The notes under the pieces were generated by a model, which did not search any database, was not told where the DNA came from, and saw only the letters and a program-made list of their open reading frames with translations. Positions 41,029-57,455 of a DNA stretch of 64,000 nucleotides are shown here, piece by piece (within the stretch, counting starts at the first letter, position 1; every line of letters starts with the position of its first letter). Source of the stretch: Nocardioides sp. BP30 (GTDB lineage: Bacteria > Actinomycetota > Actinomycetes > Propionibacteriales > Nocardioidaceae); the NCBI RefSeq assembly GCF_029873215.1, contig NZ_CP123620.1:806001-870000 (forward strand). Direction: 5' to 3'. The position numbers were made by a program, and so were the translations under genes.

Positions 41029-41109
41029 GGCAGGTTGCCCGAGCGGCCAATGGGAGCGGACTGTAAATCCGTCGCGAAAGCTTCGAAGGTTCGAATCCTT
41101 CACCTGCCA
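41029..41109 (+). tRNA. tRNA-Tyr (anticodon GTA)
   Basis: An 81-base tRNA gene. The acceptor stem GGCAGGT pairs with ACCTGCC, the discriminator is A at 41109, the anticodon GTA is at 41063-41065 in the loop CTGTAAA, the T arm is GAAGG-TTCGAAT-CCTTC, and a longer variable arm fits tRNA-Tyr. CCA is not encoded. The 3' part (41086-41110) is duplicated downstream, which marks this tRNA as an integration site. The gene itself stays intact. Confidence 0.96.
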
Positions 41110-41110
41110 C
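41086..41110 (+). repeat. attL-like core: tRNA-Tyr 3' end
   Basis: The 25 bases from the T arm to one base past the discriminator recur exactly at 57486-57510, and the last 16 recur at 58919-58934. This is the classical footprint of site-specific integration into a tRNA 3' end. Confidence 0.88.
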
Positions 41111-45331: not shown

Positions 45332-45796
45332 CGGTCTCCGCGACGAATGCGCAAGCTCCGGTGTGCGGTCGCTAGTCGGTCGGCCTCGCAGGTGCGGCGG
45401 CAATGCGATGGATGGGCGCACCTTCACCCGTGCGCTGAAGTTGCAGCGAGTGCATGTCCCGCAGCGCGCTCCGGGACGGCGACAGCGTGCCTACCCGGAA
45501 CAGGCGACGTTCTCCGTGTCGCTGAGCGCCGCGGGCGTATGCCTGGGAACGTGTCGCATCGTGGGTTTCCGTCGACGGCGCCACATTTTCGAGGCAACCC
45601 GCATATAGAACGTGTGCAGCGCGTGGCGTTCTGGGCGGAGTGCAGCAGGGAGCCAGCCCTAGGACGTTCGCCGCAACCGAGCGCAGACATGGAGCTCGCT
45701 CACTCGGGAGGAAGTTGTCACTGACCTCCCCGCCGTGCGGAGCGACGAAGCAGAGCACGCCGCGCCCTATACGCGCCCGAGTTTTGACTTTCCGGC
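45332..45796. other. No gene supported
   Basis: About 465 bases between the acidic protein and IS21. Several short frames exist on both strands, but none has a recognisable motif, start context or consistent codon use. It is probably decayed island DNA. Confidence 0.5.
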
Positions 45797-45861
45797 TGTC
45801 GGCAACGCTCGAAAATGAGGCCGATGCGACGCTCGAAAACGAGGCCACCGTTCGTTGCTGT

Positions 45862-46666
45862 TCAGTCTGCCGTGTCTTGGGTTCTGATGCTGGGCAGGGT
45901 GTCGATTCCGCGGTTGCGTAGCCGGTAGCTGGCGCCCTTCAGGGTGAGGACGTCGGCGTGGTGGACGACGCGGTCGATCATCGCTGCGGCGACGGCCTGG
46001 TCCCCGAAGACGCCGCCCCAGCCGCTGAAGGGCAGGTTGGATGTGAGGATCAGCGAGGCGTGCTCGTAGCGGCTGGACACGAGCTGGAAGAACAGGTTCG
46101 CGGCGTCCTGTTCGAAGGGGTAGGTAACCGACCTCGTCGACGATGATCAGCCCGTAGCGCCGCAAGCGTGCGAGCTCTTGGGGTAGCCGGCCGGCGCGGT
46201 GGGCGTCGGCGAGCCGGGTGACCCACTCGGTCGCGGTCGCGAACAGCACTCGGTGCTCGTGGTTGGCGGCAGCGATCCCTAGGCCGGTGGCCAGGTGGGT
46301 CTTGCCGGTGCCTGGCGGGCCGAGCAGCACGACATTGCGGGCTTCTGTGAGGAATCCACCGCATGCCAGCGATGCGATCTGCTGTCGCACGGCTGGTTGG
46401 GCGTTCCAGTCGAACTCCTCGATCGTCTTCCTGGCGGCGAACCCGGCGGCGCGGATCCGCGGCTGGGCACGGGATGCGTTCCTCGCGGCGACTTCACGGT
46501 CGAGTACCGCGGCGAGGTACTCCTCGTGGGTCCAGCCGGCGTCGCGGGCGTGGTCGGCCAACCGGACAGCAGATTCGGTGATCCGGGGCGCCTTCAGCGC
46601 GGATGCGAGGTAGGTCAGCTGCTTGAGCGCCTCGGTGCTGCCGGTCGTCGGCTTCGCCGTTGTCAT
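45862..46666 (-). pseudogene. istB: IS21 helper ATPase IstB, frameshifted
   Basis: Starts MTTAKPTTGSTEALKQLTYL (ATG at 46666, overlapping the istA stop). It has Walker A VLLGPPGTGKTHLATGLG and Walker B YGLIIVDEVGYLP. At about 46122 an extra C shifts the frame; the true continuation SSRYEHASLILTSNLPFSGW to the stop is in another frame and ends at 45862. One base restores a full IstB of about 265 aa. Confidence 0.85.
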
Positions 46667-47882
46667 CAGGCCACCTCCTCGGCTGTGGAGTCGACCAGGC
46701 CGAAGGCGCGGTCGTAGTCGGAAAGGTCGCGCACCAATCCCTCGTATGGATCTGGTGCTGAACGCGGCTGCTGATACTGCTCGCGCAGCACCTTCGCTGC
46801 GGTGACATGCGCTGGGTCGGTGATCGTCTGGCCTTGTGCCCATACCCGGTCATGGGCCGCGACGATTCGTCCCTCGTGGTGCACTTCGACCCGCGCCAGG
46901 TCCGCGGACACGTCGACGAACCGGCCGATCACCGCCGGGTCGACCGAGTAGTCACTGCTGTCGATGCGGACGTAGTAGTCCCCAGCCGGACCCGGTTGAT
47001 CCAACCCACCGCCGGCGGCACTGGTGGTAGGGGCAGCATCGCGGCACGGTCAACATCGAGCCGGTCCATCGGCTTGGCCCTGATGGTGCGCACGATCCGG
47101 GCGTTCGCGATGGTCAGCCACTCGCTGAGTTGGGTGTTTAAGTCGGCCGGGCTGGCGAAGTCGCGACCGGGCATGAAGGAGGTCTCGAAGTAGCCGTTCC
47201 TGCGTTCGACCAGGCCCTTCGATTCGGGGTCGTGGGGCTTCAGGCGCTGCAGGCTGGTGGCCAGGATGCCGGTGAACGCGCCGACGCCGTAGGCGTGCCG
47301 CTTGCCGCGGCCGATGCCTGACTCGTTGTCCCAGATCAGCCGCCGTGGCACCGCACCGAGCTGTTGAAGCAGCTCCCACATCCCCAGCAAGAGATCGGCG
47401 GTGTGCCGGGTCGGGATCATCCTCGCGAGGATGAAACGCGAGTGCGCGGCCGCGATCACCAGCACCGGCAGCAGCACCTTCGAGCCGTCCTCGAGCGGGA
47501 TCTTCCTGGGCGGGAATTACAGGTCGCACTGCGCCGCATCACCCGGCAGCCAGGTCACCGGTCCGAGGGGTCGAGGGGACGAAGCTCAGGTCGCAGCCGC
47601 CCGAGGTTCTCGCCGAACCAGGTGATCGATCCGGTCCAGCCGACTCTTCGGCGATGACCGTAGCCGGTATGTCCGGCGTCGCGGCGAGCAGTTGCCGTGC
47701 GAGTGGCTCGAACGGCGTGAACGAGGTCGGCCCCGTCGGCCGCTCGTACTTCGGCGGTCGGTCTAAGGCCAACGCCCGTTTGACCGTGGACCTGCCGTCC
47801 CCAGATCCCCTGCGACCTGCCGCTGCGGAACACCGTCCGCGACCAGCCGCCGGATCAGAGCCCAATCCTCCACTGAGATCAC
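46666..47882 (-). pseudogene. istA: IS21 transposase IstA, multiply damaged
   Basis: From a GTG at 47882 the product reads EDWALIRRLVADGVPQRQVA (HTH), then GRSTVKRALALDRPPKYERP, the rve integrase core with RLIWDNESGIGRGKRHAYG and SKGLVERRNGYFETSFMPGR, and the end VHHEGRIVAAHDRVWAQGQT. These pieces lie in different frames. I count at least four lesions: near 47797, near 47645, a stop where Trp is expected near 47520, and near 46985. Confidence 0.85.
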
Positions 47883-48071
47883 CCATCCAATCTGTCTGGG
47901 TGGCCTCGGTTCCGACCGTCGCTATGGCCTCGTTTTTCAAGAGTCGTCGACAACTGGTTGCGAATTCAGCGCGTTGCGACCAGCCGAGCCCTAGAGGACA
48001 GGGCGGAACCGGGCAACGCTCTGCTTCCGCCAACGTCGTCCCGTCAGGTAAATATCAGCGAAACTAGTTCG

Positions 48072-48145
48072 TTGACTAATGCATCGATTGCCAGTACCTT
48101 CCTCCCGGGTGCACCGAAAGAACTCCGTGGCAACCCGCGGAGTTC
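48072..48145 (+). promoter_or_regulatory. Promoter and leader hairpin of the RHS gene
   Basis: TTGACT (48072-48077), a 17-base spacer and TACCTT (48095-48100) form a near-consensus vegetative promoter. The leader carries a perfect 8-bp stem, GAACTCCG (48120-48127) and CGGAGTTC (48138-48145), which ends 21 bases before the GTG start and close to the GGAG ribosome site at 48157-48160. The hairpin could act as an operator or affect initiation. Confidence 0.6.
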
Positions 48146-48166
48146 ATTACCCTATTGGAGCGCCCT

Positions 48167-51100
48167 GTGGTCAACCTGCCGCACCACCGCCGCCGCCTCG
48201 TTAGCATGCTTGCGATTAGCAGCTTGATACTCGGCGGGACCGCGTCTCTAGATGCAACTCGAGCGCGCGCCGAAGCCGCGACCGTGCATGAGCGCGCGTC
48301 ACTCGTCAAGTCGCCAAAGTTGAAGACACCGACCGCCCTACGAGCACATCAGGCTCCCACATCTGCCCCGGCAGCGACTGTTGAGCACCTAAGCCATGAG
48401 ATCACGGCCGATCGAACGGCCACGACTAGCACATGGCAAGATAGTGACGGATCGCTAACTATTAAAAGCTACGCCCACCCGAAATTCTACAGGCCGACTA
48501 GGTCAGCGACTTGGCAGAAGATTGATCCCACACTCACTCGCACCAAGATCGCGCCAGGCCAATGGTCTTCTGGTGCAAATAATTGGCACGTGCACTTCGG
48601 TCCGATTGACGGAACAGACTCATTTGAAAGCATTGACGTGCTCGACCGAAGTGTCGGGATACGCCCGATCGCAACACAAACAGCGAAGGAAGAGATCAAG
48701 CCGGAGGTGAGCGACGCCGCGGCGGTATACCGGGACGCGTGGCCGGAAACCGATCTCCATGAGGTGGTGACTTCGGATTCTGTAGAAGAAAGCATCATCC
48801 TAAAAAACCGGCAAGCGGCGGCGCATTATTCATTCAAAGTCGAAGGTGCTACGGTCCACGAAAACACTAATGGTAGTCTGGACCTTCGGCGCGGCGGCCA
48901 GACTCTGGGAACGATCCACGCTCCAACGATTGCTACATCAGCTCCGTCGTCCAAGCACAACCTGAAAGTTAGCACGCAGCGACCATCGGGGTCTCCCGGT
49001 ATCACAGCCAGCGGAGTGCATTACCGTGTTGCGGGCGATACGATCTCTGTGGAAATCTCGCGCTCATGGCTCACTGGCGTCAGCGAATCGGCGTTCCCCA
49101 TCGTGATTGATCCATCGTTTGTTCCGGCGACGCCGTCGAGAGCATCGCAGGCAAAGTCATTTTCAACATCCGGTGGGACCTCCAACGGCAGCGTGGTTGT
49201 TGGCCAAGCGGGAACCGGCCCAAGTTGGGACGGCGCGGCCTACATCGCAACTCCGGCAACACCAACCCGTGCGTTGGGGCAACAGGGCTGGCAGATGACA
49301 GACGCCGAGCTTTCGGCGACATGCGCCAGCCACATCTGCCCGATGGAATATGGAGAGATCACGGGCCTCAACAGCTTGCCGACTAACTGGTCGGGCGTGC
49401 TCAACGGAGAGTTGCTCGCGCAGAATCTTACCGGGGCACCAGCGAACGTAATTTCTGGTCCTGTCACCCGTTGGTTCGTCGCGCATCCCTCGGGGTCGTG
49501 GTTTGGATTTTACGCGCAGGGAATAGACACCAGCGAGCAAACGGGCAACCAAAGCTACGCCTCCGTCACATTACCGGAAGCAAACATCTACGCTTCGTTC
49601 GTGTATTACCAGGAACCGGCCGCACCACAACTCATTTCGCCCACTCAGGGCAGTGTCGTGGCAACATCGACGCCCACGTTTACTGCGAGTACGACGGACA
49701 CCGAGATGTGCAAGTACGACTCTCCGTTGCCGACAAGCGATGGAGTGATGTGCGACCAGCCACAGAACGTGACATACGACTTCAAGGTTACTCAAACCGA
49801 ATTTGGGTACGCGGATGGACAGATCGTCGCGGATTCCGGTTGGATCCAGCAACCGTTCACGCTCGGCGCAGATTCTGGTCCTGAGGGTCACGAGGTGAGA
49901 ACCTCTGACCCGACATGGGCAGTACCGCCAGGTTCCCTCGTGGATGGTGCAACGTACTGGGTCAGTGTGCAGGCAGCCGACTCGAATCAAAACCCAGAGG
50001 CAACTGGACCGGAAGTCATTGCTCCACCTGCCAACCCGCGAACCCCAACTGAGATCACGGTGAAGCTCCGCGCTGGTGGCGGAGGTCCCAGTTCCATGGA
50101 CAGTGTCGGCGCTGCCCCTGGGCAGACGTCGACCCCCAGCCAGGGCTCACCGTCTCCCGGTGCCGCAACAGCAACGGAATCCGTGAATCTCACGACCGGA
50201 AACTTGGTACTTTCGGCGCAAACTCCGCACATGACCACCCTTGCGGGCCCGGCTGGCGTCACGCTTACCTACAATTCGATCGGGTCCTCTATCGATACGG
50301 GGTCTCAGTACGGCCTGACCGCCTCCTATTATCTCGACACTGGAAATCACAGCTATCCCTCGACAAGCGTTGGCACGGCGGTGACGCCATCGATTGATAC
50401 GGTATCCGATTCGTTCACGCGGACACAGCCTCCGATCGGTGGCCTTCCGGCACTAACGCCATACCTGGCAAAATGGCTCGGAACTGTGACTGTACCGACC
50501 GGAACTTGGCAGCTAGGCGGCCTTGCCAGCGGAGGGATGCGCATCTATCTCGACGGTTCTTCCACGCCGATATTCGATGACTGGGACGGGACGAGGAAGT
50601 CCTTATCGTTCGGATCCGGAGTGGCCGGTGGCGCGCATCAGATCGAGGTTGACGCTTGGGATCCTGCGCAGGCGACTCAGATCCAGTTATGGGCGAATAA
50701 TTTAACGGACCCCACTTCTCCGGTGCCGAGCGTCGTTCCGTCGTCGTGGCTTAATCCACACGCTAACGGCTTGCCCGTTGGTTGGACACTTGGAACAGGC
50801 GCGACTGCCCAATGGACGTCAATCTCAGACATGGGAGAAATTGTCGTGCTTCGGAGTCCGTTGGGGGCGACTGAGGCATTCGTTCCGAATGGCGACGGGA
50901 CCTATACTCCGGCAAGCGGAGGAAATGATTCGTTATCGTTGGCAGATGGGGCGTTTCAACTAAATACCACAGACGGATACATGTATCGGTTCTCGACGGG
51001 CGGAGAACTTCTCGCAATGTCGACAGTGGCAGACGACCTGCATCCGACTGCTTTACAATACGCTTACGGACCAGAATCTGCGACGACCGGCTCCCCGCTC

Positions 51101-54100
51101 GTACTACAGGAAATCCGAGACCCAGTTTCGAATAGAACCATCGACCTGTCGTATGGAGCTTCGAGCGCCTGCGCGGTTCCCAATGCTTTTGCCCTATTGT
51201 GCGCGGTAAAATACTGGGACGGAACGCACACTAGCTTTACTTACAACGCAAACGCAGAACTGGCAGAGGTTGACAACCCGGGGAACAGCGACACTGTATA
51301 TGGCTACGACTCAGATAACCGCCTCGACGATATCCGAGACTCGCTGGCAAACGACGAGATATCCGCTGGTGAAATCTCGGGCGAAGACTGTTCAAACGAA
51401 AATAGACAGTGCGCGTTCGACACTTGGATAAGCTACGACAGTATGGGAAGGGTCAGCTCGATCCTGGAGCCCCAGACTGGTACCAAACCAGACCGGGCAT
51501 CGCGAAGCTACGTCTATTCATCGTCAAGTACTTCAGCGGGGGCGGGCTCGACTTCCGTTTCAATCGGCGGGTATGATCCATCGTCCGGATATGACGAAAA
51601 GGTCGACCATGACGCCGAAGGCCGAATTTCGGCACAACTGTCAGCAGACGGCACCACCAATTACGTAACCTGGGATTCTCAAGATCGGCCCATTATGTCC
51701 GTTCGAGATGGCGAGCAAACCAGCCAGGTGTATGACGAGGAGTCGAACGTCACCGATAAGTATGGTCCGGCGCCGGTCGCTTGCTTCGACGCGGCCTCGA
51801 TGCCGTCAGGAGTAACGGCGAATGGTCCTGCAATCGGTTATCGGCCGCTCGCTGACTCGTCAAGTGCTGAAGGTTGCGGTGTTGTGGTGCCTCATGCCAC
51901 TAACACCTACGACGAGGGGCTCAGTGGGCTCGCGGCAGAGTACTGGCCGAACGGCGCGGAGTCCGGCTCCCCCGTGCTTCACACCACCGGTGTGGATGCA
52001 CCAGCCTCAGCGTGTCAGGAGTCCTCGGCAGACTCGAACTCGACGAGCCTGTGCGCGAAGTGGCCGTCCGGGTCCACGCCGGCGAACATTGGCACTGATA
52101 CTGACCACCAGTGGTCAATGCGTCTGACGGGAACGATCAGTTTGCCCAGCAGCGGCCAGTGGATGATGTGTGTCTTCAACTCCTCGAATCTTAATCTTAC
52201 TGTCGACATCGACGGATCGTTGGAGACCACCACTGACGCATACGTGACACCCGACTCGGCGAACGAGGGCTACTACCACGGTCCTCCGCCAGCGAGTATC
52301 GCAGAAAACAACACCCAATTTTCCGGATGGTTGTCACCCTCCTGCGGGTATGGATTTGAAGAAGACCCGATCTACCGATCTCTGTCGGCAGGAGTCCATT
52401 CGATATCGGTCGACCTCCAAGAATCGTCAGCGTCAACGACAGGGTTTGACGTAATGCTTTTGGCCCCCGGCAGCAGCACATTGGCGGAGGTGCCGCTTTC
52501 ATCCCTGAGTCCTGGATACGGGCTGAGCACGTCGGCGGTCGACCCAGACGGACTGCGGACGAGGACGACATATTCGGCTGAGAACTTGGGCCCGGAATAC
52601 GGTTTGCCGACTGCGGAGACAGCTGGAGCGGGCACTGGGGCAGCGACTACCACGACTACGACTTACGAGCCGCCATCGGCAGGATATCTCCGTCGCACCA
52701 GTTCGACCCTTCCCAGCGGGGCGACTACCACCTACGACTATTACTCCGGCATCGGTGGACCAGTTGCGGCCGTGTGTGGAGTGTCGTCCGACACGCCACA
52801 AGGCGGCCAAGTTGAGGCTGAGACGGAGCCCGGCGCCAACGGCGGAGCCGGACGCGAGCAGCAGTTCGTTTATGATGCGGCCGGCCGGCAAGTCGGCCGT
52901 CGTGTCGGACCAGCAGCATCTATCACTTCGGCACTATGGCAGTGCACCGCGTACGATTCTCGGGGCCGGGTTACCTCGGTGACGATTCCTGCGAACGCAA
53001 CTTCAGCAGCTCGCACCGTTTCGTACGGCTACAACGTTGGCGGAAACCCTGCCACTAGTAGTGTTTCCGACGGGTCTGGAACGATTAGCTCGACGGTCGA
53101 CCTCCTGGGGCGGCCGGTTAGTTACACGGATGCGAGTGGAACCACCACTGCCACGATGTATACCCGATCGGGCCTAGTCGCGGGCACAGCGGGCCCGCAG
53201 GGCACCATCGTGCCGCTCATCAACTCCGAAACAAGCAAAGTGGACGCAACATATGTGAATGGTACGCGGGTTGCTTCGATGACGTATTCCGGCCCCGGCG
53301 GGCAACTCAGCGGAGTGCTGTACGGCAACGGTGATTCGGCGGCGATAAGTTATGACGCCTTCCAGCGCGAGGATGAAGTTCTGTTCAACGACGATTCGAG
53401 CGGGGGGTTCATTAGCGGCGAAAAGATCTCGAGATCTGCTGCGGGTCGGATTGTCACCGACTTGCAAGATGTTGACGGCACGCAGCTGACCAATCCGAAC
53501 CCAGCAGGAGTCGACGCGCCGGATTATGTTTACGACGGCTCGGGACGTTTGGTTTCGGCTTACGAATCGGACGGGCTTGCGGTTTTCGGTTATGGAACAA
53601 ACAGCCCGTCAGAGGGATGCGTCAACTCTTCGCAGGGTGCAGACACAAACCGGACGAGCGTCACAATTCACCATATCTCGGGTTCGTCGTCGACTACCGA
53701 TTACTGCTACAACATGGCCAATCAGTTGGTCTCATCCATGACTGGCTCTCGTGTGTCGTCGAACTACGCTTATGACGGGAGAGGCAATCAGACGGAAGAC
53801 GATGGCATGTCGCTCACGTGGGATTCTTCCGGTCGTCTTGCAACCACGACGACGGCTTCCGGCATGACGACGACATATAGTTACGATGCGGTCGATCGCG
53901 TAACTCGGGTTCAAAGCGGTAGCGATGTAGTTCAGTATGTCTATGCTGGATATTCCGACGTTGCATCGGAGGCAATCGCTGGAACGACGAGGATGCTGCA
54001 GGTCCCTCTTGCTGGTGGCGTCGTGTTGAGTTTGGCGAATGTTTCGAGTAACGATGTTTGGTCGTTCTCGGATCTAAAGGGGAACCTTGTTGCGTCGGCC

Positions 54101-54829
54101 GACGACTCGGGTGCAGTCATTGGATCGCCAGCCACGTACGACCCGTGGGGTCGTCTAATCAGTGGCCAGGCGCCGAGCAACACCGGCGGTACGGATCAGC
54201 TTGGCGCGAACGGCGCGTTCGGCAAAACCACGGATTCGTCCTCAGGGCTAATTATGCTGGGCGCACGTGCTCTCAATCCCTCCGAGGGCCGTTTCATGAC
54301 TGTAGATCCTGTTGAGGGTGGATGTGCGAACCCTTATACTTATAGCTTTGGTGACCCGATAAATCATCCGGACCTGACCGGCCGAGACGGTTGCGATTCC
54401 TCCGGTCTTCTCGCGGGTATGATCTCCATAACCTTGGGCATCACTTCAATGGCCATCGCCGTTAGTGTAGGTGCGGAAGCAGTCCCGCTACTGGTGGCTC
54501 TAGGGGCCACTGGTCTGTTGGCGGGTGCTTATGCGACCTATACCGACCGCAGTTGTATGCAAGGTAATGACGACGCGTGCCCAGGCTTTATTCTTGGTGC
54601 GGCCGGAACCGTTCTTTCGCTCCCGAGTCTTGCACCGGGATTGCCGGACATCGTTGGCCTGCCCGCCTCTGCTGCCGGCATCTCACTGGGCACAGCAGGA
54701 ACTATCGCCGACCTAGTCTCCGGGTACGGGAGTGCCGTGTGCAGCGTGGAAGGCGTAATTCATGACATTGGCACCGGCATCGGTGATCTCATCGGAGGCG
54801 TTGCCGGATTCCTCGGAAATCTGTTTTAG
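48167..54829 (+). CDS. Giant secreted RHS/YD-repeat protein, candidate polymorphic toxin
   Basis: A 2220-aa protein. A signal peptide (LVSMLAISSLILGGTASLDA, then ARAEA) starts it. Residues 40-500 are a beta-rich N-terminal region. Two PA14-like domains follow, at about 690-850 (TASYYLDTG...LAKWLGTVTVPTG) and 1250-1440 (GLAAEYWPNG...WSMRLTGTISLP). YD repeats occupy about 960-2040, for example VYGYDSDNRLDDI, FVYDAAGRQVGRR and YVYDGSGRLVSAY. The RHS core ends with GARALNPSEGRFMTVDPVEG and YTYSFGDPINHPDLTG. The last 145 aa form a distinct Gly/Ala-rich hydrophobic tail. GC content is clearly lower than in neighbours, a sign of transfer. The GTG at 48167 is preferred over a TTG at 48155 because GGAG sits 6 bases before it. 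Toxin function is inferred from family and layout. Confidence 0.88.
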   Translation: MVNLPHHRRRLVSMLAISSLILGGTASLDATRARAEAATVHERASLVKSPKLKTPTALRAHQAPTSAPAATVEHLSHEITADRTATTSTWQDSDGSLTIKSYAHPKFYRPTRSATWQKIDPTLTRTKIAPGQWSSGANNWHVHFGPIDGTDSFESIDVLDRSVGIRPIATQTAKEEIKPEVSDAAAVYRDAWPETDLHEVVTSDSVEESIILKNRQAAAHYSFKVEGATVHENTNGSLDLRRGGQTLGTIHAPTIATSAPSSKHNLKVSTQRPSGSPGITASGVHYRVAGDTISVEISRSWLTGVSESAFPIVIDPSFVPATPSRASQAKSFSTSGGTSNGSVVVGQAGTGPSWDGAAYIATPATPTRALGQQGWQMTDAELSATCASHICPMEYGEITGLNSLPTNWSGVLNGELLAQNLTGAPANVISGPVTRWFVAHPSGSWFGFYAQGIDTSEQTGNQSYASVTLPEANIYASFVYYQEPAAPQLISPTQGSVVATSTPTFTASTTDTEMCKYDSPLPTSDGVMCDQPQNVTYDFKVTQTEFGYADGQIVADSGWIQQPFTLGADSGPEGHEVRTSDPTWAVPPGSLVDGATYWVSVQAADSNQNPEATGPEVIAPPANPRTPTEITVKLRAGGGGPSSMDSVGAAPGQTSTPSQGSPSPGAATATESVNLTTGNLVLSAQTPHMTTLAGPAGVTLTYNSIGSSIDTGSQYGLTASYYLDTGNHSYPSTSVGTAVTPSIDTVSDSFTRTQPPIGGLPALTPYLAKWLGTVTVPTGTWQLGGLASGGMRIYLDGSSTPIFDDWDGTRKSLSFGSGVAGGAHQIEVDAWDPAQATQIQLWANNLTDPTSPVPSVVPSSWLNPHANGLPVGWTLGTGATAQWTSISDMGEIVVLRSPLGATEAFVPNGDGTYTPASGGNDSLSLADGAFQLNTTDGYMYRFSTGGELLAMSTVADDLHPTALQYAYGPESATTGSPLVLQEIRDPVSNRTIDLSYGASSACAVPNAFALLCAVKYWDGTHTSFTYNANAELAEVDNPGNSDTVYGYDSDNRLDDIRDSLANDEISAGEISGEDCSNENRQCAFDTWISYDSMGRVSSILEPQTGTKPDRASRSYVYSSSSTSAGAGSTSVSIGGYDPSSGYDEKVDHDAEGRISAQLSADGTTNYVTWDSQDRPIMSVRDGEQTSQVYDEESNVTDKYGPAPVACFDAASMPSGVTANGPAIGYRPLADSSSAEGCGVVVPHATNTYDEGLSGLAAEYWPNGAESGSPVLHTTGVDAPASACQESSADSNSTSLCAKWPSGSTPANIGTDTDHQWSMRLTGTISLPSSGQWMMCVFNSSNLNLTVDIDGSLETTTDAYVTPDSANEGYYHGPPPASIAENNTQFSGWLSPSCGYGFEEDPIYRSLSAGVHSISVDLQESSASTTGFDVMLLAPGSSTLAEVPLSSLSPGYGLSTSAVDPDGLRTRTTYSAENLGPEYGLPTAETAGAGTGAATTTTTTYEPPSAGYLRRTSSTLPSGATTTYDYYSGIGGPVAAVCGVSSDTPQGGQVEAETEPGANGGAGREQQFVYDAAGRQVGRRVGPAASITSALWQCTAYDSRGRVTSVTIPANATSAARTVSYGYNVGGNPATSSVSDGSGTISSTVDLLGRPVSYTDASGTTTATMYTRSGLVAGTAGPQGTIVPLINSETSKVDATYVNGTRVASMTYSGPGGQLSGVLYGNGDSAAISYDAFQREDEVLFNDDSSGGFISGEKISRSAAGRIVTDLQDVDGTQLTNPNPAGVDAPDYVYDGSGRLVSAYESDGLAVFGYGTNSPSEGCVNSSQGADTNRTSVTIHHISGSSSTTDYCYNMANQLVSSMTGSRVSSNYAYDGRGNQTEDDGMSLTWDSSGRLATTTTASGMTTTYSYDAVDRVTRVQSGSDVVQYVYAGYSDVASEAIAGTTRMLQVPLAGGVVLSLANVSSNDVWSFSDLKGNLVASADDSGAVIGSPATYDPWGRLISGQAPSNTGGTDQLGANGAFGKTTDSSSGLIMLGARALNPSEGRFMTVDPVEGGCANPYTYSFGDPINHPDLTGRDGCDSSGLLAGMISITLGITSMAIAVSVGAEAVPLLVALGATGLLAGAYATYTDRSCMQGNDDACPGFILGAAGTVLSLPSLAPGLPDIVGLPASAAGISLGTAGTIADLVSGYGSAVCSVEGVIHDIGTGIGDLIGGVAGFLGNLF

Positions 54830-54834
54830 AGGCG

Positions 54835-55203
54835 ATGGTGGTTGGGTTGAGTTTGGAAAGCATGGCGCCAGCGCCGTTCCACGCGCTGAGTCTGCCGGAG
54901 AGAAGGCTCGCCGTTCGTTACTTTGCTGTTTACGTAGATCGGCTGCATCGGGGACTTCCGGCTAGGCGGGGTCAGTCCGAATTAGCGTGTGCCCAGGCTG
55001 CCTGCGCTCAGGCGCTAAGATGGCGAACAGTTCCTATCGGCCTTCTTGGCGCTATTGGCCTGGTTCTGTTGACGGCGCATCTCGGTTCTTGGGGCATTTG
55101 GTCAGGCGTCGTGCTCATTTTGGTCTTTATTGCCGGAACGATACATGCTGTCATGGTTGCGCAGAAACAAGTCCAATACTTTCGGAATGCGTCTGATCGA
55201 TAG
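54835..55203 (+). CDS. Two-TM membrane protein, candidate immunity protein
   Basis: A 122-aa protein starting 5 bases after the RHS stop, in the same low-GC style. Residues 1-60 are basic and cytosolic (ERRLAVRYFAVYVDRLHRGL). Two TM helices follow, VPIGLLGAIGLVLLTAHLG and WSGVVLILVFIAGTIHAVMV, then a short basic tail. Position right after a toxin-like gene and membrane location fit an immunity protein against a membrane-acting effector. There is no family I recognise, so the role is an inference from context. Confidence 0.6.
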   Translation: MVVGLSLESMAPAPFHALSLPERRLAVRYFAVYVDRLHRGLPARRGQSELACAQAACAQALRWRTVPIGLLGAIGLVLLTAHLGSWGIWSGVVLILVFIAGTIHAVMVAQKQVQYFRNASDR

Positions 55204-55224
55204 GAATTGTCGTGTGCCCATGCA

Positions 55225-56158
55225 GTGCTTGAAGCGTGGCAGATCCCGTATGGTTGCCGAGAGCAGCGGACGCCGCGCTCATCGCCATTGGCCGACGTGC
55301 GTAGCGTGGCGGAGCCCTGTAGCGGGTTCCACTGGCGGTCGTAGACGTCGACTATGGCATCCGAGCTGTGACGGGTCACCAGGCGTACGGCGCGGGTTGA
55401 GGCTCCTGCGCGCCGGCCCTGGGTGACCAGGCCGGCGCGCAGCGAGTGGTAGCCGTACAGGTCGGCTCGATAGCCGGCGGCGTCGAGGCGGGTCAGGATC
55501 ATCTCCCCCAGCGCATTGCCGGTGATGCCGCGCAGCCGCGGCGCCTCACCGGTCCCGCCGGCGGACACCAGGTTCCCCGAGGTCCAGGTCGGCGTTGCGA
55601 TCGTGGCGGTGCGCCGGTTGCGGTAGGTCGCTCGCAGCACGGGCTGCTCGGCAGCCAGCGCTGGGGAGTCCGGAAGACCTGCCCGGCAGATGTGGGTCGT
55701 GCACTCCGGCTGATGGGTCTGGTGGTTGAACAGGATCCGCATCGTCTCCCGACGCTGCTCTGAAGCGTCTAGATCGGGATCGGAGGCAATCGCGACCAGG
55801 CCTGCCCAGTGGACGTAGGCACACGCGACGCAAGTGCGCGTTGCGGACCCGTAGGGCACGGCTATTAGGGAGGGCTTGGCGTTGTCCTGGTTGGCCTTCG
55901 ACTTGCCGACGGTGATCCACAACCCGTCGTGCGGGTGGAGCTCGACCTGGCCGAAGCGCAGCGCGGCCACCTCCGAGCGGCGCAGTGCCGCGGCCCACCG
56001 CAGCCACGGTGCGAGGGTGTCGCGCTGTCGCGCGCGGCCGAGACGCCGGCCGCGTAGATGTCGTGCTCCATCGTATCGATGAGGGTGAGCAGGTCCTGCG
56101 GCAGCAGTGGCCGCTTGCGGACCACGGGCCCCTGGCGCTTGCTGGCCAGCCCGAAGAG
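55225..56158 (-). pseudogene. Tyrosine integrase, 5'-truncated by IS3 and frameshifted
   Basis: The catalytic domain is recognisable: first Arg region WLRWAAALRRSEVAALRFGQ, then GYHSLRAGLVTQGRRAGAS (HxxR), LVTRHSSDAIVDVYDR with the second His and the nucleophile Tyr at about 55340. The upstream part PVVRKRPLLPQDLLTLID lies in a neighbouring frame, so a one-base shift near 56020 splits the gene. Beyond 56158 the IS3 element begins and the N-terminal half is gone. The 3' end runs without a proper stop towards the RHS-linked membrane gene. It differs from the integrase stub at the left end of the island. Confidence 0.8.
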
Positions 56159-56229
56159 GGGTCTGCTGAACGAGTAGGGGACTTCCAGATCGGCTAGGAC
56201 GAGGGTCCTGGCTGGAAGGATGGTCCATC

Positions 56230-56538
56230 GTGGCTGGCAGGTATCCCAGAGAGTTCAAGGATGACGTGATCCGGGTCGCCCGTGATTGCGGTCCGGGTGA
56301 GACTCTCGAGCAGATCGCGCACGACTTCGGTGTGCATCCGGTGACACTCTCGAAGTGGATCCGTGAAGCCGATGTCGAGGACGGCATCAAGCCCGGCCTC
56401 ACGAAGGACCAGGCCGCCGAGCTGCGGGAAGCAAGGCGCCGGATTCGGCGTCTGGAGCAGGAGAACGAAGTACTTCGCCGGGCGACGGCGTATCTGTCGC
56501 AGGCTAATCTCCCGGGAAAAGGCTCTACCCGCTCGTGA
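56230..56538 (+). CDS. IS3 transposase OrfA
   Basis: 102 aa, intact. It has the helix-turn-helix LEQIAHDFGVHPVTLSKWIR and a leucine zipper LREARRRIRRLEQENEVLRR that mediates multimerisation. It overlaps orfB by four bases; a GGGAAAAGG run at 56514-56522 is where programmed -1 frameshifting normally makes the OrfAB fusion. Confidence 0.88.
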   Translation: MAGRYPREFKDDVIRVARDCGPGETLEQIAHDFGVHPVTLSKWIREADVEDGIKPGLTKDQAAELREARRRIRRLEQENEVLRRATAYLSQANLPGKGSTRS

Positions 56539-57455
56539 GAGACCTCGCGGCGAGCGGTGTGCCCGCGCAGGTCGCCCTGGAGACGCTCGGACTGGGTCGC
56601 TCGCCCTACTACCGCTGGCTCAAGAACCCCGTCACCGATTCGGAGTTGAGCCAGGCCTACCTCGCGAACGCGTTGTTCGACGCCCACCGAGACGACCCGG
56701 AGTTCGGCTACCGGTTCCTCTTCGACGAGGTTAGCGACGCCGGCCACGAAGTGTCAGAGCGCACCGTATGGCGGATCTGCTCGGACAACGGCTGGTGGAG
56801 CGTGTTCGGAAAGAAGAAGCGCGGCAAGAAGGCCGGCGGAAACAGGGTCGGCGCGCCCGCGCATGAGGACCTGGCATGAGGACCTGGCATGAGGACCTGG
56901 CATGAGGACCTGGTGCGCCGCGACTTCAGCGCCGAGCGGCCCAACCAGCTGTGGTTGCCCGACTTGACCGAGCACCGCACGGCCGAAGGCAAGCTGTACC
57001 TCTGCCGCGATCAAGGACGTCTGGTCCAACCGCATCGTCGGGTACTCCATCAGCGATCGGATGGAGTCCAAGATCGCTGTCGACGCGCTCAACAACGCGG
57101 TCGCCAGGCGTCGGATCGATGGCATCGGGGTTGATGGATGTCGTCTGCATTCTCATCGCGGGTCGCAATTTCGCAGCCGGAAGCTGCAGCAGGCGTTGTG
57201 GCGTCATCAGATGCTCGGATCGATGGGCCAGGTCGGCTCTGCTGGCGACAACGCGGCGATGGAGTCGTTCTTCAGCCTGCTGCAGAACAACGTCCTCAAC
57301 CGCCGTCGCTGGGACACCCGAGAGGAACTCCGCATCGCGATCGTGTCCTGGATCGAGCGGACCTACCACCGCCGTCGACGCCAAGACCGGCTCGGTCGGT
57401 TGACCCGATCGAGTTCGAAATCATGATGAGCAAGGCCGCCGATCAGGCAGCGTAA
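56535..57455 (+). pseudogene. IS3 transposase OrfB, broken
   Basis: The N-terminal part to SVFGKKKRGKKAGGNRVGAP is fine, then a four-copy 13-bp repeat puts a TGA in frame at 56877. Reading resumes as DFSAERPNQLWLPDLTEHRT with the first catalytic Asp, shifts by an extra C near 57006, and continues as KIAVDALNNAVARRRIDGIG. The second catalytic Asp is lost: LHSHRGSQF instead of HSDRGSQF. The Glu remains in NAAMESFFSLLQ. A missing C near 57407 shifts the end, which in frame would finish IEFEIMMSKAADQAA. Confidence 0.85.
56862..56913 (+). repeat. Four tandem copies of a 13-bp unit inside orfB
   Basis: CATGAGGACCTGG is repeated four times without spacer. The ancestral gene would have one copy. The three extra copies add 39 bases, which keeps the frame downstream, yet the 13-base phase creates an in-frame TGA. 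Replication slippage is the likely cause. Confidence 0.9.

What the first reader, a model, noticed from the sequence alone, without database searches (positions are those of the whole stretch)
48167..55203. Secreted RHS giant plus adjacent two-TM protein: candidate undescribed toxin-immunity pair
The 2220-aa RHS protein has a signal peptide, PA14-like domains, YD repeats, and an RHS core end (GRFMTVDPVEG) followed by a 145-aa tail not resembling known nuclease or deaminase tails. The tail is hydrophobic and Gly/Ala rich. The next gene, 5 bases away, encodes a small two-TM protein. A membrane-acting tail with a membrane immunity protein would fit.
Basis: inference. Interest (0 to 1): 0.72.

Follow-up and report, generated by a model that had tools for sequence, protein, structure and literature searches.

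The report
Secreted RHS toxin with membrane-acting tail
A giant, apparently secreted bacterial protein ends in a greasy, membrane-seeking tail and sits directly beside a small membrane protein; together they look like a weapon that punctures rival cells and the shield that protects its maker, and related bacteria carry differently sequenced pairs of the same build.

Summary
An intact 2220-aa RHS protein (48167-54829) has a signal-peptide-like start, YD repeats, an RHS core with both catalytic aspartates, then a 145-aa hydrophobic tail. Five bases later a 122-aa ORF encodes a two-TM hairpin. Both lie in one low-GC block that ends where the small ORF ends. From residue 2074 the tail has no Lys, one Arg and one His, so a nuclease-type enzyme is unlikely. 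A second sample points the same way but is not significant (7 of 16 against 8 of 36, p = 0.11); combined 32 of 55 against 36 of 129 (p = 1e-4). ORFs further downstream show no such effect. Best reading: a Sec-exported RHS polymorphic toxin with a pore- or ionophore-type tail and a hairpin immunity protein, working like Tse5/Tsi5 and the CDI ionophores. Toxicity and immunity are untested. New variant of a known kind.

The parts
48167..54829 (+). RHS/YD-repeat protein, 2220 aa, intact frame
48167..48277 (+). probable Sec signal peptide, residues 1-37
   Evidence: by eye, with a hydropathy peak of 1.55 at residue 11
50306..50653 (+). PA14-like segment, below the Pfam cut-off
   Evidence: E 0.0019, 18.4 bits, cut-off 24
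54137..54382 (+). RHS-associated core, residues 1991-2072
   Evidence: TIGR03696, 41.6 bits, cut-off 32.5
54305..54307 (+). D2047, aligned with the first catalytic Asp of the Tse5 self-cutting core
   Evidence: alignment; roles from PMC10684867 passages
54371..54373 (+). D2069, aligned with the second catalytic Asp
   Evidence: alignment; roles from PMC10684867 passages
54392..54829 (+). hydrophobic, Gly/Ala-rich tail, residues 2076-2220 and stop: proposed membrane toxin
   Evidence: no Pfam family; composition and hydropathy
54770..54808 (+). GxxxGxxxGxxxG run in the tail, residues 2202-2214
   Evidence: not significant against shuffles (P about 0.10)
54835..55203 (+). 122-aa two-TM protein: proposed immunity protein
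55030..55086 (+). first TM peak, residues 66-84
55105..55161 (+). second TM peak, residues 91-109
48001..55200 (.). low-GC block holding both genes

Best explanation
The pair is a polymorphic toxin and its immunity protein. The RHS protein is exported by Sec (inferred from the N-terminus). Its YD repeats form a shell that holds the tail (inferred from Tse5). The aspartyl-protease core, with both catalytic Asp present (shown by alignment), cuts the chain just after the core and frees about 147 residues (inferred). That tail, hydrophobic along its length, acidic and nearly free of Lys and Arg (shown), inserts into the membrane of a neighbouring cell and makes a pore or ionophore that collapses its membrane potential (inferred). 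The adjacent 122-aa protein is a two-helix hairpin with positively charged flanks and an uncharged loop (shown from sequence), so both ends probably face the cytoplasm; it sits in the producer's membrane and blocks the inserted tail (inferred).
For: Intact RHS gene with complete core; core Asp residues align with D1141 and D1164 of Tse5 (E 0.00059; roles from PMC10684867). Tail from residue 2074: 0 Lys, 1 Arg, 1 His, 9 Asp, 2 Glu, 27 Gly, 21 Ala in 147 aa; most hydrophobic of 111 tails of 90-200 aa. Hairpin gene 5 bases downstream; hairpin model, mean pLDDT 68; positively charged flanks. GC drops to about 0.58 over both genes and rises at the end of the small ORF. Class survey: 25 of 39 hydrophobic tails against 28 of 93 others have an adjacent ORF with two or more TM segments, p = 3e-4, with flat controls; eight of the ten most hydrophobic tails other than the window's. 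Precedents: Tse5 with Tsi5, which has two predicted TM regions (PMC9637101); CDI ionophores with two-helix hairpin immunity proteins that vary strongly (PMC11630599).
Against: The second survey sample is not significant (7 of 16 against 8 of 36, p = 0.11). 14 of 39 hydrophobic tails in the first sample lack such a neighbour, and of the 25 that have one only 13 neighbours have exactly two TM segments. Codon usage does not favour the small ORF: its frame scores -1.1, one other frame +7.9. No terminator was found after it. The glycine run is not significant. The tail model is poor, pLDDT 44. No test of toxicity, export or immunity exists.
Confidence: 0.66

Rival explanations
1. The tail is a membrane-entry or 'pre-toxin' module whose enzymatic toxin was lost or never acquired; the RHS gene is disarmed and the small ORF is a leftover.
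For: Several actinobacterial RHS tails start with a hydrophobic stretch and go on into a polar domain, with a neighbour lacking TM segments (for example L176, L177, L180, L187). 14 of 39 hydrophobic tails lack an adjacent multi-TM gene.
Against: Hydrophobicity runs to the last residue and Lys/Arg are nearly absent, unlike those tails; the hairpin gene follows after 5 bases and inside the same low-GC block; the most hydrophobic tails have the TM neighbour most often (8 of 10).
Confidence: 0.15
2. The 122-aa ORF is not a working gene, or is an unrelated membrane protein next to the RHS gene by chance; the tail may still be a toxin with its immunity gene elsewhere.
For: Codon usage does not support the ORF; no convincing relative in the own genome, 58 close genomes or 148 genomes of the order of G439.
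Against: Two-TM ORFs are rare in control places: 8 of 81 at +700 to +840 and 0 of 131 antisense. GC by codon position is lowest at position 2 (0.656, 0.484, 0.549), as in coding DNA. A single-sequence model gives a helical hairpin at mean pLDDT 68.
Confidence: 0.12
3. The hydrophobic tail is an anchor that holds the RHS shell in the producer's own membrane, as a surface protein, with the small protein as partner or chaperone.
For: A hydrophobic C-terminus could serve as an anchor (inference only).
Against: The tail follows a core with both self-cutting aspartates, and tails after this core differ from locus to locus as toxin tails do.
Confidence: 0.05

Closest known systems
Tse5 / Tsi5 of Pseudomonas aeruginosa (T6SS Rhs pore-forming toxin)
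   Same: RHS protein with self-cutting aspartyl core, hydrophobic non-enzymatic tail, immunity protein with two predicted TM regions (PMC9637101 and PMC10684867, passages); the C-terminal part of the window protein matches Tse5 in the PDB search
   Different: T6SS cargo of a Gram-negative; the window protein has a signal-peptide-like start and no PAAR-type N-terminus was seen; the match covers the RHS part, not the tail
CDI ionophore toxins (CdiA-CT) and hairpin CdiI proteins
   Same: Membrane-depolarising tail; small (72-100 aa), very hydrophobic two-helix hairpin immunity proteins with both ends in the cytoplasm; strong sequence variation (PMC11630599, passages)
   Different: CdiA carrier and receptor-specific entry domains of Gram-negatives; the five-helix bundle could not be tested in the window tail (model pLDDT 44)
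Glycine-zipper T7SS toxins EsxX and TelE
   Same: Gram-positive, membrane-depolarising, glycine-rich C-terminus, membrane proteins among the immunity factors (PMC12744356, passages)
   Different: LXG carrier, not RHS; the glycine run in the window tail is not significant
WapA-type RHS toxins of Gram-positives
   Same: Large Sec-exported RHS proteins with variable toxin tails (PMC12704120, passages)
   Different: In the passages seen no pore-forming tail is described; no cell-wall anchoring part was identified in the window protein
W-TIP domain
   Same: Small, highly hydrophobic, non-enzymatic tail of polymorphic toxins, predicted to form a pore (PMC3482391, passages)
   Different: Its RxxR signature cannot be met by a tail with one Arg; described there as restricted to proteobacteria

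Membership tests
RHS/YD-repeat polymorphic toxins | YD repeats and RHS-associated core above curated cut-offs | tested here: met
RHS/YD-repeat polymorphic toxins | Catalytic Asp pair of the self-cutting core | tested here: met
   D2047 and D2069 align with the Tse5 pair
RHS/YD-repeat polymorphic toxins | Variable tail after the core, followed by an immunity gene | tested here: inconclusive
   Tail and adjacent small gene present; immunity not shown
Tse5-type Rhs pore-forming toxins | Sequence relation of the tail to the Tse5 tail | tested here: inconclusive
   The PDB match covers the RHS part only; the solved Tse5 chain matched ends at the core, so the tail was not compared
Tse5-type Rhs pore-forming toxins | Membrane insertion and channel activity | not testable with these tools
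   needs bench work
Hairpin immunity proteins (Tsi5 / CDI ionophore CdiI kind) | Two TM helices as a hairpin, positively charged flanks | tested here: met
Hairpin immunity proteins (Tsi5 / CDI ionophore CdiI kind) | Protects against the cognate tail | not testable with these tools
   needs bench work
Glycine-zipper depolarising toxins (EsxX/TelE) | Glycine zipper beyond what composition gives | tested here: not met
   run of four G at spacing 4, shuffle P about 0.10; GxxxG pairs P about 0.12
WapA-type Sec-exported RHS | Sec signal peptide | tested here: inconclusive
   by eye and hydropathy only

The most novel reading that the evidence does not exclude
Actinomycetota hold a large, hardly described arsenal of Sec-exported RHS toxins whose tails are membrane pores or ionophores, each paired with its own small multi-TM immunity protein, some of them a TM hairpin joined to a PH-like domain (L042, L076, L175). 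The window pair is the most hydrophobic example of its size seen here. Pairs diverge so fast that sequence search misses them; only the layout (core, hydrophobic tail, adjacent multi-TM gene) shows the class.
Probability: 0.45. Interest if true: 0.62.

Novelty: new variant of a known kind. Interest (0 to 1): 0.46.

Why it matters
The characterised Rhs pore-former in the papers I saw, Tse5, is a T6SS cargo of a Gram-negative. A Sec-exported actinobacterial counterpart with a hairpin immunity protein would show that the same trick works without an injection machine, and would give a simple rule (hydrophobic tail plus adjacent multi-TM gene) for finding more. It would also bear on how a membrane-inserting toxin leaves its producer safely, which the RHS shell is thought to solve.

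Tried and rejected
Sequence relatives of the tail: 58 close genomes gave only its own copy. Of 396 phylum genomes four passed E 0.001, the own one and three weak ones: G157 is an RHS core plus an unlike tail, reached across two stops; G253 aligns in a 289-aa ORF where the core motif was not found and looks compositional; G099 was not examined further. Plasmids, the first genome-contig scan (few patterns) and viral contigs gave none. Relatives of the 122-aa protein: own genome only itself; 58 close genomes, 16 with a match at E up to 0.1 including the own one, best other E 0.0095; 0 of 148 genomes of the order of G439 (which itself warns that an empty answer shows nothing); none in viral contigs or plasmids.

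A likeness of this tail to those of L037, L084, L065 and others looked promising with plain shuffles and faded when local composition was kept, best z 3.1. The glycine zipper as a diagnostic was dropped. Choosing the next gene by codon usage was dropped because it missed neighbours; instead all ORFs of 50 aa or more starting -40 to +100 were scored, with controls. No fold search was made with the tail model (pLDDT 44). Foldseek with the hairpin model gave 83 matches at E up to 10 and none at 0.001. No terminator-like site on the + strand in 47600-56600, no inverted repeat of 8 or more in 54700-55400.

Limits of the survey: cores were found by a motif, not curated, and some rows may be false (for example L021, a 50-aa 'tail'). 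First sample: 158 tails, 139 after removing look-alikes, 133 with at least 300 nt downstream, window included. The hydropathy cut-off of 0 was one of several tried (11 tests, p 0.0003 to 0.15); the second sample used that cut-off as fixed. Second sample: 100 regions fetched out of a capped list, 50 held a motif-positive tail, 52 new unlike tails. Related loci are not independent events, and no phylogenetic correction was made.

Full report
What is there. The window holds an intact RHS gene at 48167-54829 (+), 2220 aa, and a 122-aa ORF at 54835-55203, five bases after the stop. YD repeats and the RHS-associated core (residues 1991-2072) ring above curated cut-offs. A PA14-like segment at 50306-50653 is below its cut-off and a second segment tested gives nothing. 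The first residues look like a Sec signal peptide by eye. The last 320 aa match Tse5 (8cp6, E 0.00059) in the PDB search; core residues D2047 and D2069 line up with the pair that the Tse5 paper numbers D1141 and D1164 and that cuts the Tse5 tail free (PMC10684867, passages; the numbering assumes that the solved chain starts at residue 48).

The tail. Residues 2076-2220 match no Pfam family at E up to 1. From residue 2074 the 147 aa contain no Lys, one Arg, one His, 9 Asp, 2 Glu, 27 Gly and 21 Ala, and the five blocks have mean hydropathy 0.63 to 1.23; it is the most hydrophobic of 111 RHS tails of 90-200 aa, itself included. That composition argues against a nuclease or deaminase (inference). 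A GxxxGxxxGxxxG run lies near the end but is not significant against shuffles (P about 0.10). A single-sequence AlphaFold2 model is all-helical with pLDDT 44, too low to use.

The small protein. It has two TM peaks, no charge in or between them, and positively charged flanks (9 K/R and 4 D/E before, 3 and 1 after), so probably a hairpin with both ends in the cytoplasm. Its single-sequence model is a helical hairpin, mean pLDDT 68, 71 to 84 over residues 71-120, without a PDB match at E 0.001. Codon usage does not support it: its own frame scores -1.1 and one other frame +7.9 under the RHS codon model. GC by codon position is lowest at position 2.

Setting. The 2-kb bins of the window have GC 0.62 to 0.77 outside 48-54 kb and 0.58 to 0.59 inside; in 200-base bins GC rises from 0.53 to 0.64 and 0.74 just after the end of the small ORF, so both genes probably came as one piece. 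IS21-like genes lie upstream, a weak integrase match and IS3-like pieces downstream, and a tRNA-Tyr at 41029-41110. The nearest RHS bodies are in the order of G439, 36-39% identity in the six best matches. One member, G476, is probably the Acidimicrobiia bacterium nzgw84: the L060 segment, first row of the query alignment, matched that record at 100%. No convincing relative of the tail or of the small protein was found in the genomes, plasmids and viral contigs searched.

The survey. Because the exact pair is an orphan, I tested the class. From the loci held a core motif gave 158 tails, 139 unlike each other, 133 with at least 300 nt downstream, the window included. Leaving the window out, 25 of 39 tails with mean hydropathy of at least 0 are followed by an ORF (50 aa or more, start -40 to +100) with two or more TM segments, against 28 of 93 other tails (Fisher p = 3e-4). 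The ten other versions of the test gave p from 0.0018 to 0.15. Controls: ORFs at +700 to +840, 1 of 20 against 7 of 61, while the adjacent ORFs of the same loci give 12 of 20 against 18 of 61; antisense ORFs within 500 nt, 0 of 131. Of the ten other tails with hydropathy 0.35 or more, eight have such a neighbour. Of the 25 neighbours, 13 have exactly two TM segments and 12 are 130 aa or shorter, so 'multi-TM' is the class feature and 'hairpin' only part of it. A second sample of 100 fetched regions gave 52 new tails: 7 of 16 against 8 of 36, p = 0.11, control 1 of 13 against 2 of 32; together 32 of 55 against 36 of 129, p = 1e-4. Part of the background is expected: two other RHS tails are phospholipase A2 domains by Pfam, and one of them (L063) lies next to a multi-TM protein.

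Mechanism. The best reading is a polymorphic toxin with a membrane-inserting tail and a hairpin immunity protein. Shown: the anatomy, the core aspartates, the composition, the shared low-GC block, and the class association (significant in the first sample and combined, not in the second alone). Inferred: export by Sec, self-cutting, insertion, pore or ionophore action, and protection. It works like Tse5/Tsi5, whose immunity protein also has two predicted TM regions (PMC9637101, passages), and like the CDI ionophores, whose immunity proteins are very variable two-helix hairpins (PMC11630599, passages). By tested features it is a member of the RHS toxin family; membership in a named pore-forming tail family is not shown.

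Rivals. A disarmed RHS with only an entry module (0.15) is weakened by hydrophobicity up to the last residue and the tight spacing to the neighbour. A non-functional small ORF (0.12) is weakened by the rarity of multi-TM ORFs in control places, but codon usage leaves it open. An anchor (0.05) is weakened by the self-cutting core.

Novelty. Searches of the open-access library listed among others Tse5, LXG toxins, CDI ionophores and WapA; in the listings, abstracts and passages I saw (passages: PMC9637101, PMC10684867, PMC12744356, PMC11630599, PMC3482391, PMC12704120, PMC10327511) there was no actinobacterial RHS with a pore-forming tail. Most subscription papers and all preprints are outside that library, so this is a limited statement. 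I file it as a new variant of a known kind.

Noticed in passing
L007 2125-9317 (-) (own genome, C1 about 3.879-3.886 Mb): A second RHS protein of the same genome, 2252 aa, whose tail holds a CxxHDxC motif that I recall from phospholipase A2 (Pfam did not ring for it); a 158-aa multi-TM ORF overlaps its stop codon.
   Followed up: partly
L006 4038-9806 (-) (own genome, C1 about 2.58 Mb): A third RHS protein, 1922 aa, with a Lys/Asn-rich tail that ends in a short hydrophobic stretch.
   Followed up: no
   Followed up: partly
L042, L076, L175 (perhaps L164), next to hydrophobic RHS tails: Neighbour proteins with a TM hairpin and a bacterial PH-like domain: bPH_6 above cut-off in L175 (25.7 bits, cut-off 22), below it in L076 and L042; L164 only bPH_5 at E 0.08. 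A possible recurrent immunity architecture.
   Followed up: partly
G188:C1 about 766-785 kb: A run of RHS core places one after another, 14 core matches in this genome of 1.8 Mb, which looks like an array of tail cassettes.
   Followed up: no
window 45767-47529 (-), 55008-56747 (-), 56230-57426 (+): IS21-like genes (IstB and an integrase-core piece), a weak phage-integrase match, and IS3-like pieces in several frames on both sides of the low-GC block: signs of a mobile stretch.
   Followed up: partly
window 41029-41110 (+): tRNA-Tyr upstream of the mobile stretch, a possible insertion site; no second copy of its end was looked for.
   Followed up: no
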